45,487 bases of DNA from Natronococcus sp. A-GB1 (GTDB lineage Archaea > Halobacteriota > Halobacteria > Halobacteriales > Natrialbaceae), in contig NZ_JARUKW010000025.1 of NCBI RefSeq assembly GCF_029688845.1, forward strand, positions 1-45,487. Direction: 5' to 3'. The notes under the pieces are model-generated. The model ran no database searches, was not told the DNA's origin, and worked only from the letters and a program-made list of their open reading frames with translations. The stretch's first letter is position 1. Each line of letters opens with the position of its first letter. Below, in pieces: positions 1 to 4,099 of the stretch. Position numbers and translations under genes: made by a program.

Positions 1-171
1 TTTCGGCCGAACAACTATGAGTCTTTCTTTAGGTCCCGAATATCTAAAATTGAAGCATCGTATACGAACCAGGATGAGATGCACCGGAAGCAAAACTCGG
101 TTGAGGAAGTGCCGTCCGTTCCCACCTGGTTGGTAGATTCTTCCAATAAGCAGTGTTCAGGATACGTCTGA
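1..171 (+). CDS. C-terminal end of a truncated gene, possibly a sulfatase
   Basis: An open frame runs from the first base to a TGA at 169-171 and gives 56 residues with ordinary coding character. It includes PSVPTWLVDSSN and ends in SGYV. Haloarchaeal sulfatase/alkaline-phosphatase superfamily proteins often end in a similar P-x-W-L-x-D...L-GY-(V/I) tail, and sulfatases are common beside glycan clusters, so this is a tentative match. The start and catalytic part lie outside the window. The GC content is lower than in most genes here. The call rests only on the tail and on context, and another secreted or glycan-related protein is possible. Confidence 0.4.
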   Translation, partial: FRPNNYESFFRSRISKIEASYTNQDEMHRKQNSVEEVPSVPTWLVDSSNKQCSGYV

Positions 172-404
172 GTGATACAAGATTAATATTGTTTCTTACA
201 GAAGTTATTAGTGTAGGAACGAGTAGAGTGTATACTGTCGGGGTGTCGGTGCCTGTTCAGGCGACCCGCCCCGACTACCCTGTCAGGTAGGTCCGAAAGC
301 GAGGGATCGCGGTCAATCCCTCGCCCTCGGGCACCAACACTGCGATAGGCGTGCCGACTCGGCGACACCGGGCTTTGGTCGGACTTCTACAGGCGGAGCA
401 GGCC
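172..404. other. Non-coding stretch left of the IS, with a hairpin
   Basis: No convincing gene is visible. The first part is AT-rich. A perfect inverted repeat of 9-base arms (299-307 and 316-324, arm GCGAGGGAT) with an 8-base loop could be an IS200/IS605-type end or a terminator. The boundary between flank and insertion sequence cannot be fixed without an empty-site comparison. Confidence 0.4.
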
Positions 405-409
405 GAGTG

Positions 410-430
410 CCTCGGGGCTTGACCCCGAGG
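410..430. repeat. Left-end hairpin of the IS200/IS605 element
   Basis: Arms CCTCGGGG (410-417) and CCCCGAGG (423-430) flank the 5-base loop CTTGA. In this IS family TnpA recognises subterminal hairpins like this as single-stranded DNA. The same arms occur at the right end. Confidence 0.7.
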
Positions 431-692
431 GTGAAGGCCGTACGCTCCGTTAAACGTGTTCCGTCCGCTCGATGTACTGCTCAATCGTGCCGGTCGAAAC
501 GTCACTTGCCGTCCCCACGTAGTACGATTCCTTCCAAAACCCACCGCCCCACAGGTACTTCTCCAAGAACAATTCGTATTGTTCCCACATTTCCCGTGCC
601 GTGATACTCTTAACCGTTCGTACAATCTCACTCGGTGCGTGCTTCGGGTGGGCCGAAAGGAACAGATGTACGTGGTCGGGAGAAATGTGGAG

Positions 693-749
693 TCGTTCGA
701 GAGACGGAGTCTCTCGTGATCCCGAAAATCTTCGATTCTCGGACGATGA
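693..749. repeat. Double-hairpin miniature element, copy A (in frame in tnpA)
   Basis: This 57-bp segment is absent from the expected TnpA sequence. It holds two stem-loops with 3-base loops: 698-716 (8-bp stem CGAGAGAC, loop GGA) and 722-742 (9-bp stem with one mismatch, loop TTC), 5 bases apart. Its length is a multiple of three, so the tnpA frame continues through it. It closely parallels copy D in layout and in its CGAGAGA stem. Confidence 0.75.
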
Positions 750-836
750 CAGTATCTCGTATCCGTATTCGTCGCACACGTCGCGGAAACTCGCTTCCAG
801 GGAACTCTCGATTGGTTCGAGAATCACGTGCCGGTA

Positions 837-887
837 CTAAGCGGGATCTCCGATCCCGCGAGGTACGCAAAGCTTCGCTTTGCTTGA
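837..887. repeat. Double-hairpin miniature element, copy B (stop codon in tnpA)
   Basis: This 51-bp segment splits the conserved CPK-YRH motif of tnpA. It has two perfect stem-loops with 3-base loops: 841-859 (stem GCGGGATC, loop TCC) and 867-883 (stem GCAAAGC, loop TTC), 7 bases apart. Read on the tnpA strand it starts TCA, like copies A and C on their coding strands, and ends TTAG, which contributes the in-frame stop. Confidence 0.75.
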
Positions 888-980
888 CTTCGGACACCAC
901 ACGAAGTGATAGTTGACGTTGTACACCGTGTGGTTCGACCGCTTCTCACCCATATTGAGAACACTTTACCGACACAGTCA

Positions 981-1000
981 AGTATATCTAAAGGATATAC
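981..1000 (+). promoter_or_regulatory. Likely promoter of the DUF2080-tnpB pair
   Basis: The AT-rich stretch AGTATATCTAAAGGATATAC contains TATA-like boxes and lies just upstream of the ATG at 1007. It is close to symmetric and sits between the divergent tnpA and tnpB units, so it may serve both directions. Confidence 0.45.
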
Positions 1001-1006
1001 ACAGGT

Positions 1007-1162
1007 ATGGCGAACCGCTTTGAAATCGAGGGTGAGGAAATTCTCGACGGTGAGGTCAAGCCGTTCGGGAACAGTGCCCACGTCACCGTCCCCAAACGCT
1101 GGCGAGGGGCCGACGTAAAAATCGTCCGGACCTCAGAACCCACCGAACAAGACGAAGAATGA
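1007..1162 (+). CDS. DUF2080-like small transposon-associated protein
   Basis: This 51-residue acidic protein starts MANRFEIEGEEILDG and contains GNSAHVTVPKRWRG, a short swapped-hairpin AbrB-like pattern (N-S-A-H-V-x-V-P) seen in the haloarchaeal DUF2080 transposon-encoded family. The family usually sits directly upstream of tnpB, as here. Its TGA overlaps the tnpB ATG by four bases (ATGA at 1159-1162), which implies translational coupling. Its role is unproven; binding DNA as a regulator or accessory factor of the element is a reasonable guess. It is the only intact gene of this IS. Confidence 0.75.
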   Translation: MANRFEIEGEEILDGEVKPFGNSAHVTVPKRWRGADVKIVRTSEPTEQDEE

Positions 1163-2488
1163 CCGACTCACAGGCTCTCGTCAAGACGTTGGTCTTCCAA
1201 CTCGACATCCAGAGTGACAACGAGAGCCTACTGTACGACGCTACGCTCGAAGCCCGCCGGGTGTACAACGAAACCATCCGTCTCGCCAAGCAAGGCGTGG
1301 ATTGGGACGCAATTCCCGACAGCGTGGCCGACGACGCCGACCTTGTGAAGAACACGACTCAGCGCGTCGTCGCCAAAGCACTCGGCGCGGTGGAGAACTA
1401 CTACGAGTACGACGACTTCGGCAAACCCAGTCACACCAAGGACGGCACATACCCGCTTCGTGCGAACTACGAGGAAGGGTACAACCTGTCTCTCACCGAC
1501 GACGGTGATGTGACGTTCCGAATCAGCGCGAAGCCGTACAAGCACGTCAAGGGCGTTCTTGAAGGCGACGACGCCCACCTTGACGTTCTCAAAACTGCGC
1601 TCACAGGTGACGAGTGGAAGATTGGGACTGCTGAAACCCTATTTCACAACGAGAACGCCGAGTTACACGTCAACGTCACCAATACCAAGCAGACCGTCCG
1701 AGACAAGCAGGACTCACGGACGGTTATCGGCGTGGACATGAACGAGGACAACGTGTCCCTTACCGCTCTCTCCGAAGGTGGCGTCGAGGACACGTTGGTC
1801 ATCGACTTCCAGAAATCAAGTTCGAGCGACACTGCTACTTCACGATGCGGAAGCGCGTGCAGAACGCTGGAAAGGACAGCATCCACGACACGTTGGAAGG
1901 GCGTGAGGAACGGTTTGTCCGTGACCGACTCCACAAAGTGAGCCGTCACATCGTGGAGTGGGGCCGTCAGTTCGAGAAGCCATGTATCGTCTTTGAAGAC
2001 CTCAAAGAGATGCGCGACAGTATCGACTACGGTACGCGGATGAATCGGCGCTTGCACCACCTCCCGTTCCGCGCCCTTCAGTTCTATACATCGTACAAGG
2101 CATTGTTCGTGGGGATTCCGACCGCGTGGATTGACCCTGCGTACACGAGTCAGCGGTGTCCGATGTGTGGTCACACGGAGCGTGCGAACCGCAACAAGAA
2201 GCGGTTCAAGTGTCGGTCGTGTGGGCATCAAGACCACAGTGACCGTAGTGCAAGCGTCAATATCGCTGTGCAGGGCGTGAAGAAACTCGATTGGAATGTG
2301 CCTGCTCTCAACAGCCTTCCCGTTGTTCGGAAGGTGCGACGTTCACAAGAGCGAAGCTCTTTTGCAGCCCGCAAAGTCGCTACGCGACTTTGAGACGGCG
2401 GGCATCGGGGGCTGTGGACGCCCCGTCCGTGACCCACGACACCGTTCGAGGGTATCAGACCGATGGTGTCGCGGGAGTGTCCGACTAA
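1159..2488 (+). pseudogene. tnpB: TnpB RNA-guided nuclease, frameshifted and interrupted
   Basis: The frame starts at the ATG at 1159 and reads through the RuvC-type motif VIGVDMNEDN. A one-base loss near 1809-1812 (TTCCAG where TTCCCAGAA is expected) shifts the frame. The protein then continues in the frame covering 1845-2393 with IVFEDLKEM (catalytic Glu), the zinc ribbon CPMCGH...CRSCGH and DHSDRSASVNIA (last catalytic Asp). A 56-bp insert at 2343-2398 shifts the frame again. After it the normal tail RASGAVDAPSVTH...GVSD resumes and stops at 2486-2488. Repaired, it would be a full TnpB of about 420 residues with the D-E-D triad and four-cysteine finger intact, so decay looks recent. Confidence 0.88.
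2343..2398. repeat. Double-hairpin miniature element, copy C (in tnpB 3' end)
   Basis: This 56-bp segment lies between the RKVRR and RASGAVDAP parts of tnpB. It has two stem-loops with 3-base loops: 2347-2361 (stem AAGAGC, loop GAA) and 2372-2392 (stem CAAAGTCGC, loop TAC), 10 bases apart. It starts TCA on the coding strand. Being 3n+2 long it shifts the frame, so translation ends inside it at 2391-2393. Confidence 0.75.
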
Positions 2489-2499
2489 TCCACGGGAAG

Positions 2500-2578
2500 C
2501 CTCGGGGTCGTACGGAAGATCTTCGATCTTCCGTGATAACGAGAGAGCTTTGCTCTCTCGAACCACTTGACCCCGAGG
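2500..2578. repeat. Right-end hairpin of the IS, split by an insert
   Basis: Arms CCTCGGGG (2500-2507) and CCCCGAGG (2571-2578) match the left-end hairpin but are 63 bases apart instead of 5. The intervening DNA is copy D of the double-hairpin element. In TnpB systems the right end also encodes the 3' part of the guide RNA scaffold, so this insertion probably disrupts both transposition and the guide RNA. Confidence 0.7.
2508..2563. repeat. Double-hairpin miniature element, copy D (in IS right end)
   Basis: It has two perfect 9-bp stems with 3-base loops: 2513-2533 (stem CGGAAGATC, loop TTC) and 2540-2560 (stem CGAGAGAGC, loop TTT), 6 bases apart. The flank GAACCA matches GAACGA of copy A. 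Ends are uncertain by a few bases because the native loop of the IS hairpin is inferred. Confidence 0.72.
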
Positions 2579-2713
2579 CGGTTCACTCGTGAGGAGTGGA
2601 CGCGCCTGCAGCAGGTGACCCCAACCGGTCGTGTGGCGCGGTCGGGCTCTCGATGAGCGTTCTCTCCCAGTTGCCCAAGGGCACACCTTTCCATCTTCCT
2701 TCTAATTCCAAAA

Positions 2714-2724
2714 TACTAAAATAA
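2714..2724 (+). promoter_or_regulatory. TATA box of the deacetylase lipoprotein gene
   Basis: The AT-rich run TACTAAAATAA is centred about 27 bases before the ATG at 2747, as expected for a leaderless haloarchaeal transcript. Confidence 0.5.
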
Positions 2725-2746
2725 TGCTTCTTCTAACACCTATTCA

Positions 2747-4099
2747 ATGGTGGAACGTTCGCGGTTCCGACGACAGTTTCTGGCAGCGTCCGGTGGGACG
2801 ATGGGGATGGCTCTGGCCGGTTGTATGGATCAGATCAGTTCCGGCTCTTCGGACGAGGAGGGCAACGAGTCGTCGAACGAGACTGACGGTGAGGACACCG
2901 AGACCGAAGGCACTGAGAGTGCGGACTCCGACGACGTCGACTCGCCCGAACTTACCGTCGAGACGGAGTACAACAGCCGCGAGGAGTACCGACAGCCCGG
3001 CGAGGCGTTCGTCGACTTCGAGAGCCTCGAGGAGTGGGAGCTACTGGAGGGCTCGGGTGACGCCGAGACGGACGTCGTCTTCGATGGGGACCAGAGCCTG
3101 CGGCTGACCGCCGAGGACGAGGACAACGCCGTCGTGGCGACGGAGTTCGAGGCGACGGACCTGAGCGACCGTGACGTCTCGATGGCGGTCCGGACGACGA
3201 CGCCGGCGAACATCGCCCTCGAGATCCAGCTTCGGGATATCTACGGCGGCTACGCGAGCTACATGCTGCAGTCGGTCTCCTACGGCAGCGACGAACCCGG
3301 CTGGTTCCGAACCTGCCCCGGTTTCGCCGACGAGAGCACGACCCCCGTCGAGCAGGACGCGATCGACGAACTGCGTGTCGTGGTTCACAACACCGGTGAC
3401 GAGGCCGAGGTCTGGGTCGATGATATTCGTACACACGAGAAGCCCGACCAGGGTTACGTCATCCTCTGTTGGGACGATGGGTTCGAGGACTTCTATGAGC
3501 CGGCGGGGCCGATCCACGACGAGTACGACGTCACCGCGGTCCAGGCGGCCGTTCGTCAGTGGACCCGCGATCAACGTGATGGCATCATGACGACCGACCA
3601 GCTCCTCGAGCGCCAAGAGGCCGGCGATCAGATCGTTGCCCACGGCACTCACACCGAGTTCGCCGACATGGAGCCCGACGAGCTGCGGGACTCGATCGAG
3701 ACCGATAAGAACTGGGCGGTCCAGAACGAGTTTCAGGGCGGCCATTACCTCGTGTTCCCTCACAACAACTTCAACCGGGAGGTCCTCGAGTTGGTGTCGG
3801 ACTACTATTATGCTGGTGGGTTCAACCAGGCCGGGAACGTCAACCTTACCGGCGTCACCGGCTACGATCCGCTCGTCCTCCCGCGGACGATCGGCCACGA
3901 CCTCGAGATCGCGGCACAGTGTGTCGACGCCGCTGCCGCCCACCGGCAGTGTACAATCCTGAACTTCCACGCCTTCGATCTGGACAACACGATGGACGCC
4001 GACGACTACGAGGACCTGGTCCAGTACATCGCGGAGACCGACGGCGTCGAGGCCATCGACTTCGACGACCTCTGGGCGATGCGCCGGGCAGGACACTGA
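2747..4099 (+). CDS. Tat lipoprotein with polysaccharide deacetylase (NodB) domain
   Basis: The protein has 450 residues. The N-terminus has a twin-arginine motif (FRRQFLAASGG) and a lipobox LAGC with Cys26 as the probable lipidation site, so it should be exported folded and anchored outside the membrane. An acidic Ser/Glu/Thr linker spans about residues 30-70. A jelly-roll-like carbohydrate-binding region (about 85-230, ending VWVDDIRTHE) precedes the NodB fold. Metal and catalytic motifs are WDDGFEDF (about 240) and HGTHTEF (about 298; H-x3-H type). The likely reaction is removal of N-acetyl or O-acetyl groups from an extracellular glycan, which fits the nearby glycan cluster. The substrate is unknown. 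Confidence 0.85.
   Translation: MVERSRFRRQFLAASGGTMGMALAGCMDQISSGSSDEEGNESSNETDGEDTETEGTESADSDDVDSPELTVETEYNSREEYRQPGEAFVDFESLEEWELLEGSGDAETDVVFDGDQSLRLTAEDEDNAVVATEFEATDLSDRDVSMAVRTTTPANIALEIQLRDIYGGYASYMLQSVSYGSDEPGWFRTCPGFADESTTPVEQDAIDELRVVVHNTGDEAEVWVDDIRTHEKPDQGYVILCWDDGFEDFYEPAGPIHDEYDVTAVQAAVRQWTRDQRDGIMTTDQLLERQEAGDQIVAHGTHTEFADMEPDELRDSIETDKNWAVQNEFQGGHYLVFPHNNFNREVLELVSDYYYAGGFNQAGNVNLTGVTGYDPLVLPRTIGHDLEIAAQCVDAAAAHRQCTILNFHAFDLDNTMDADDYEDLVQYIAETDGVEAIDFDDLWAMRRAGH

What the first reader, a model, noticed from the sequence alone, without database searches (positions are those of the whole stretch)
693..2563. A family of 51-57-bp double-hairpin elements inserted four times in one IS
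Four segments (693-749, 837-887, 2343-2398, 2508-2563) each hold two stem-loops with exactly three-base loops, 5-10 bases apart. Stem sequences differ (for example GCGGGATC, CGGAAGATC, CAAAGTCGC, CGAGAGAC) but pairing is kept. All loops are closed by a C-G pair, and each copy has one loop reading TTC (or GAA on the other strand). Each interrupts known IS sequence, so they look like mobile inserts, comparable in idea to Rickettsia palindromic elements or REP pairs. I know of no described haloarchaeal family with this layout. A single mechanism, such as copying by a single-strand transposase, would explain the compensatory stems.
Basis: partly seen in the sequence, partly recalled or inferred. 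Interest (0 to 1): 0.85.

Follow-up and report, generated by a model that had tools for sequence, protein, structure and literature searches.

The report
Jumping double-hairpin DNA in salt-loving archaea
Four 51-58-letter DNA inserts in this transposon belong to families of tiny mobile elements, each folding into two small hairpins, that occur in nearly every haloarchaeal genome examined and whose way of moving is unknown.

Summary
Four double hairpins interrupt one IS200/IS605 element: E1 693-746, E2 837-887, E3 2341-2396, E4 2508-2565. Homologous IS copies elsewhere show each site both empty and filled. The joins are clean, with no target duplication and no loss of host DNA. E1 and E4 belong to one sequence family (A), E2 and E3 to two others. 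Family A (TCGTTCGA-stem-NNN-stem-TCGTGATGACGA-stem-NNN-stem-TCGAACCA, mostly 54-66 nt) is in 56/61 genomes of the host's family and 137/145 of the class Halobacteria. Stems are 97.7% paired, and nearly all differences between copies are two-sided; loops vary freely but favour RRA/TYY. Insertions prefer CGNNG|C; many lie in near-terminal palindromes of IS605/PATE elements. Copies identical including loops sit in diverged flanks within one genome, which indicates recent spread. The closest described elements are the SMR-A repeats of Haloquadratum (~110 bp, mobilisation 'enigmatic'); composite four-hairpin copies here are 109-115 bp. Best guess: non-autonomous elements moved as single-stranded hairpins by a trans-acting HUH-type nuclease. 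Y1 itself is doubtful, since genomes with recent identical copies can lack detectable Y1. Mobility is well supported; the enzyme is inferred.

The parts
386..2586 (.). Host IS200/IS605 element (tnpA + tnpB, divergent), from LE TCTACAGGCGG to RE GGTTCAC
   Evidence: LE/RE match PATE-like copies in the same genome; Y1_Tnp and TnpB TNB domains
450..954 (-). tnpA (Y1, PF01797), interrupted by E2 (in-phase TAG) and E1 (in-frame, 18 residues, no stop); the only Y1 hit in this genome assembly
1159..2393 (+). tnpB, frameshifted near 1815-1845 and interrupted near its 3' end by E3
409..430 (.). LE near-terminal palindrome GCCTCGGGG-CTTGA-CCCCGAGG, empty at the site homologous to E4
2499..2579 (.). RE near-terminal palindrome GCCTCGGGG | E4 | CTTGA CCCCGAGGC
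693..746 (-). E1: family-A double hairpin, 54 nt, in frame in tnpA; same site filled in L094 and L122, empty in L099, L172, L180, L218, L238
837..887 (.). E2: double hairpin of the GAGGTAC-linker family, 51 nt; same site filled in L218 and L238, empty in L094, L099, L122, L172, L176
2341..2396 (+). E3: double hairpin GTTCAC...GAGAC, 56 nt, in tnpB 3' end; empty in L090, L175, L218; L092 carries a family-A element 4 nt away
2508..2565 (+). E4: family-A double hairpin, 58 nt, at the stem/loop joint of the RE palindrome; empty in L218, different element in L094

Best explanation
E1-E4 are copies of non-autonomous mobile double-hairpin elements of haloarchaea. Shown: clean insertion without target duplication, a preferred target CGNNG|C for family A, presence across the class, copies identical in diverged flanks within genomes, covarying stems and variable loops. 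Inferred: the unit is recognised and moved as single-stranded DNA folded into two C-NNN-G hairpins, by an HUH-type (IS200/605-like or other) nuclease supplied in trans that cuts at the short conserved ends and joins the element 3' of a short target. Inferred: paired stems are kept because one arm is recopied from the other by template switching, because only folding copies are mobilised, or both. Many copies lie in loops of IS605/PATE terminal palindromes, where they may do little harm. Rough odds: mobile element 0.95; DNA-hairpin route by an HUH enzyme 0.45; IS200/605 TnpA in particular 0.3.
For: Empty and filled homologues of all four sites and an empty homologue for 95 of 197 family-A copies, e.g. 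L228 against L247 at 97.9% over 97 nt. Junction G|C in 180 of 197 copies; in 101 unique sites C at -5 78%, G at -4 81%, G at -1 94%, C at +1 93%. 56/61 genomes of the family, 137/145 of the class, 79 of 80 named records Halobacteria. Paired cells 99.5%, 51 double-sided changes against 13.1 shuffled, 2 one-sided; 199 compensatory against 38 one-sided changes at homologous sites. Length steps of 2 nt: 54, 56, 58, 60, 62. Identical E in diverged flanks in one genome. Loops: 76% GNA/TNC and 88% RRA/TYY; GNA loops closed by C-G are known to make very stable DNA mini-hairpins (own knowledge). DNA folds of E2, E3, E4 z = -4.4, -3.5, -5.8. About 9-fold higher density near intact Y1 genes than in a sample of the own genome (different genomes, rough).
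Against: Element counts correlate only weakly with Y1 counts (Spearman 0.27, p 0.036), and 11 of the 13 genomes without Y1 hits carry copies. G082 and G069 have identical copies in diverged flanks but no PF01797 hit. No excision intermediate or enzyme was observed. Non-PATE flanks are not more palindromic than shuffled ones, so a general preference for hairpin loops is not shown. Gene conversion between host repeats could mimic part of the within-genome identity. E1 as folded DNA is hardly better than shuffles (z -1.1).
Confidence: 0.6

Rival explanations
1. RNA route: the element is transcribed, folds as RNA and is reverse-transcribed into the target, as has been suggested for yeast mitochondrial GC clusters.
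For: G.T over A.C among stem mismatches, 21 against 8 in unique hairpins, p 0.024, slightly favours one strand acting as RNA; the 3' end reads ACCA; PMC4478555 proposes an RNA route for hairpin clusters.
Against: The G.T bias is weak and could be mutational; the ends are near inverted repeats (TCGT../..ACCA or ACGA), so CCA may be chance; no poly-A tail, no target duplication; reverse transcriptases were not surveyed.
Confidence: 0.12
2. Not mobile on their own: inherited parts of IS/PATE copies, homogenised by gene conversion and lost by hairpin-mediated precise deletion, so that empty sites are losses.
For: E1 and E2 sites are shared by IS copies of other genomes; several identical copies lie in related host repeats.
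Against: Different families occupy nearly the same site (E3 against L092); copies in many unrelated contexts; family-specific target; nested element-in-element copies with the host linker on both sides; empty state is common and exact.
Confidence: 0.08
3. A dedicated unknown integrase or recombinase (not HUH) recognises the folded element, analogous to integron attC recognition.
For: Variable stems with conserved fold; copies with recent spread in genomes without detectable Y1.
Against: No candidate gene identified; no duplicated core at the two ends.
Confidence: 0.2
4. Functional RNA or terminator hairpins kept by selection at their places.
For: A few conserved sites, e.g. GGCTGTG|E|CCACACAGCC in four genera; paired stems.
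Against: Presence/absence at homologous sites; insertions inside transposase genes; loops and stems turn over freely; no Rfam match.
Confidence: 0.05

Closest known systems
SMR-A small mobile repeats of Haloquadratum walsbyi (HqIRS42, HqIRS43, HqIRS55; PMC3119063)
   Same: Non-coding, terminal inverted repeats unlike those of transposons, no target duplication, insert in near-terminal palindromes of IS605-type elements and PATEs.
   Different: SMR-A are ~110 bp and commonly >95% alike within a type; these are mostly 54-66 nt with highly variable paired stems and occur class-wide. Composite 109-115 bp copies suggest SMR-A could be composites; their sequences were not on hand.
PATEs (palindrome-associated transposable elements; PMC3119063)
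   Same: Short, palindromic, no target duplication, tied to IS605 elements.
   Different: PATEs keep IS605 ends and have no terminal inverted repeats; here PATEs are hosts, and the elements sit inside their palindromes.
REPINs / REP doublets with RAYT (PMC3116915)
   Same: Two inverted palindromic units as the mobile unit, compensatory changes, proposed single-stranded mobilisation in trans.
   Different: No cognate Y1 in every genome with copies; separate triloop hairpins with variable stems; insertion within genes.
Double-hairpin elements of fungal mitochondria (Paquin et al. 2000, cited in PMC4478555) and GC clusters of yeast mtDNA
   Same: Two hairpins, mobile; in GC42 changes are concentrated in the loops.
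   Different: Mitochondrial; no sequence comparison made; no known IS605 link.
Rickettsia palindromic elements (from own knowledge)
   Same: In-frame insertion inside a protein gene (E1 in TnpA).
   Different: RPEs are longer and recur in frame in many housekeeping genes; here in-frame insertion is not the rule.

Membership tests
SMR-A | No target duplication | tested here: met
SMR-A | Terminal inverted repeats unrelated to known transposons | tested here: inconclusive
   8-nt imperfect inverted ends TCGTTCGA/TCGAACCA seen; relation to all transposons not searched
SMR-A | Integration in near-terminal palindromes of IS605/PATE | tested here: met
   E4 and 4 other strong copies in the own genome; not exclusive
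SMR-A | Length about 110 bp | tested here: not met
   53-68 nt in all 226 copies counted; only composites reach 109-115
SMR-A | Sequence homology to HqIRS42/43/55 | not testable with these tools
   Their sequences are in supplements not readable here; family A does occur in Haloquadratum at 54-56 nt
REPIN | Cognate RAYT (Y1) in the genome with units beside it | tested here: not met
   Only 7 of 38 intact Y1 loci carry an element nearby; 11 genomes have copies and no Y1 hit
REPIN | Two inverted palindromic units with conserved tags | tested here: met
PATE | No terminal inverted repeats, IS605-derived ends | tested here: not met
   Inverted ends present; IS605 ends lie outside the element
Double-hairpin elements (mitochondrial) | Two hairpins inserted as a unit | tested here: met
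   working likeness only, no homology tested
IS200/605-mobilised element | Short specific target on one side, no duplication | tested here: met
   CGNNG|C
IS200/605-mobilised element | Dependence on a Y1 TnpA | tested here: inconclusive

The most novel reading that the evidence does not exclude
Haloarchaea carry several class-wide families of minimal mobile DNA defined by fold (two C-NNN-G hairpins) more than by sequence, which diversify while staying paired, nest in one another to form larger SMR-A-like repeats, and move by a nuclease or integrase not yet identified and not an IS200/605 Y1 enzyme.
Probability: 0.3. Interest if true: 0.82.

Novelty: new variant of a known kind. Interest (0 to 1): 0.63.

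Why it matters
It would account for a large, so far unnamed part of haloarchaeal repeats, may explain the enigmatic SMR-A elements, and gives a clear system (fixed ends, fixed target, empty sites, many copies) to ask how hairpin DNA moves and how stems stay paired. It also affects gene calling: elements of 54 or 60 nt can sit in frame inside proteins, as E1 does in TnpA.

Tried and rejected
Chance hairpins: rejected. Known RNA family: no Rfam match in window 1-4000 at E<=1, and in 16 element-bearing loci only two tRNAs. General preference for hairpin loops as targets: not shown once PATE-like sites are removed. Insertion in a GC-GNA-GC mini-hairpin: 15 of 101 unique sites against 0.6% background, but this is confounded by the CGNNG preference and by host repeats, so not claimed. 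Hairpin inversion as the main source of loop change: only 4 exact flips among 71 same-stem pairs, though 3-base changes outnumber 2-base ones 21 to 4; suggestive only. Viral spread: 2 family-A viral contigs, 0 for the E2 pattern. Interrupted ~110-bp palindromes in Haloquadratum J07HQW1 with one PATE-like pattern: none found. Papers holding the consensus words: none relevant. Model R2 cross-hits family A (E4 at 2.9e-7), so its 59/61 count overstates the E3 family proper.

Full report
Check of the observation. The four segments are real. All eight hairpins have 3-nt loops closed by C-G. E1's second stem has one mismatch. Comparison with homologous IS copies gives exact limits: E1 693-746, E2 837-887, E3 2341-2396, E4 2508-2565. 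In 399 kb of the same genome a strict double C-NNN-G hairpin occurs 7 times against 0 in ten Markov controls; among single hairpins with stems of 8 or more, 3-nt loops stand out (57 against 22.2 expected; closing C-G 32 against 8.2).

The host. 386-2586 is an IS200/IS605 element with a Y1 tnpA on the minus strand (450-954) and tnpB on the plus strand. Its ends match short PATE-like copies in the same genome. E2 brings an in-phase TAG into tnpA; E1 adds 18 residues in frame without a stop. E3 lies at the end of tnpB, which is also frameshifted upstream. E4 lies at the stem/loop joint of the RE palindrome, GCCTCGGGG|E4|CTTGACCCCGAGGC; the LE palindrome of the same IS (409-430) is empty. From general knowledge of TnpB systems this region should lie in the omega-RNA scaffold; that was not tested. 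This tnpA is the only Y1 hit in the genome assembly.

Empty sites. All four sites exist filled and empty in IS copies of other genomes. E1: window, L094, L122 filled; L099, L172, L180, L218, L238 empty. E2: window, L218, L238 filled; five empty. E3: window filled; in L092 a family-A element sits 4 nt away; L090, L175, L218 empty. E4: window and L094 filled with different elements; L218 empty. Class-wide, 95 of 197 family-A copies have an empty homologue in the DNA held, with clean joins, no target duplication and no loss.

The families. A covariance model from seven copies finds family A in the own genome (E1, E4 and about ten others), in 56 of 61 genomes of the family and in 137 of 145 genomes of the class, 55 of 58 genera. 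Two viral contigs matched. E3 belongs to a second family (GTTCAC..CAGCCC..GAC; model R2); R2 also picks up family A, so its 59/61 is an upper bound. E2 belongs to a third (TAAGCGGGANC..GAGGTNC). De novo clustering by linker shows further sets, and some elements are inserted in the linkers of others (L276, L277, L389-L391).

Structure and change. In 197 distinct family-A elements 97.7% of 3577 stem pairs are Watson-Crick. In 24 elements of 54 nt, 99.5% of cells pair; 51 cells are changed on both sides against 13.1 in shuffles, and 2 on one side. At homologous sites 199 compensatory changes stand against 38 one-sided. Lengths step by two. The near absence of intermediates fits either recopying of one arm from the other or strong selection; this was not separated. 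Loops vary even between homologous copies of E1 (GGA, GAT, ACA on one strand), but 88% of 3-nt loops are RRA or TYY and 76% GNA or TNC. A strand bias among mismatches (G.T 21, A.C 8; p 0.024) is weak.

Target. Over 101 unique sites the joint reads C(78%)G(81%)NNG(94%)|C(93%)G(64%). PATE palindromes contain CGGGG|C, so their frequent use follows in part from this target. E2 read on the other strand fits CGAAG|T; the E3 family uses C|G. Outside PATE-like sites flanks are not unusually palindromic.

Mobility. Identical elements, loops included, lie in clearly diverged flanks of one genome: L181/L334 and L336/L337 in G082, three copies in G013, four in G092, and near-identical ones in Haloquadratum. 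As loops turn over quickly between species, this points to recent spread; conversion between host repeats remains possible for some.

Who moves them. Y1 genes are the natural suspects: two subterminal hairpins, a short target on one side, no duplication, and a roughly 9-fold density near intact Y1 genes (11 in 125 kb against 4 in 399 kb, different genomes, so rough). But 11 of 13 genomes of the family sample without Y1 hits carry copies, G049 the most with 16-19; the correlation is weak; and G082 and G069, with identical copies, have no Y1 hit. Copies may outlive their enzyme, so this is not decisive.

Known relatives. SMR-A repeats of Haloquadratum share lack of duplication, inverted ends and the PATE/IS605 palindrome target; their mobilisation is called enigmatic (PMC3119063). 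Family A occurs in Haloquadratum at 54-56 nt, shorter than the 80-bp element called exceedingly short there. Abutting or nested double elements of 109-115 bp suggest that SMR-A may be such composites; this is inference, as the SMR-A sequences could not be read. REPINs (PMC3116915) and mitochondrial double-hairpin elements (cited in PMC4478555) work alike in outline, but membership tests fail (REPIN) or were not possible.

Verdict. It is not a single family and not wholly without precedent, but its class-wide spread, fold-first conservation, fixed target and clean insertion appear undescribed in the papers I could search; subscription journals and ISfinder were not searchable.

Noticed in passing
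L093, L214, L263 and others; flanks: Another class-wide haloarchaeal repeat (AAAGCCCC..variable arm..GACTCGCTG CGCTCCTCG..complementary arm..GGCCCCTTTCAGTCCCACCC) with long compensatory arms is a frequent host of family A; no Rfam match in the loci scanned.
   Followed up: partly
L276, L277, L389, L390, L391: Double hairpins inserted into the linker of other double hairpins, giving four-hairpin units of about 109-115 bp in several cases.
   Followed up: partly
L064, L069, L074, L110, L125: Family A at the same conserved site GGCTGTG|E|CCACACAGCC in four genera, empty in L257; possibly an old insertion or a hot spot.
   Followed up: partly
window 1815-1845: tnpB carries a frameshift independent of the inserts.
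   Followed up: no
L122, L218, L191: A further shared family-A site in tnpA (CTCGGGGCGTG|E|CTTCGGGTG) in Natrinema, Haloquadratum and G015.
   Followed up: no
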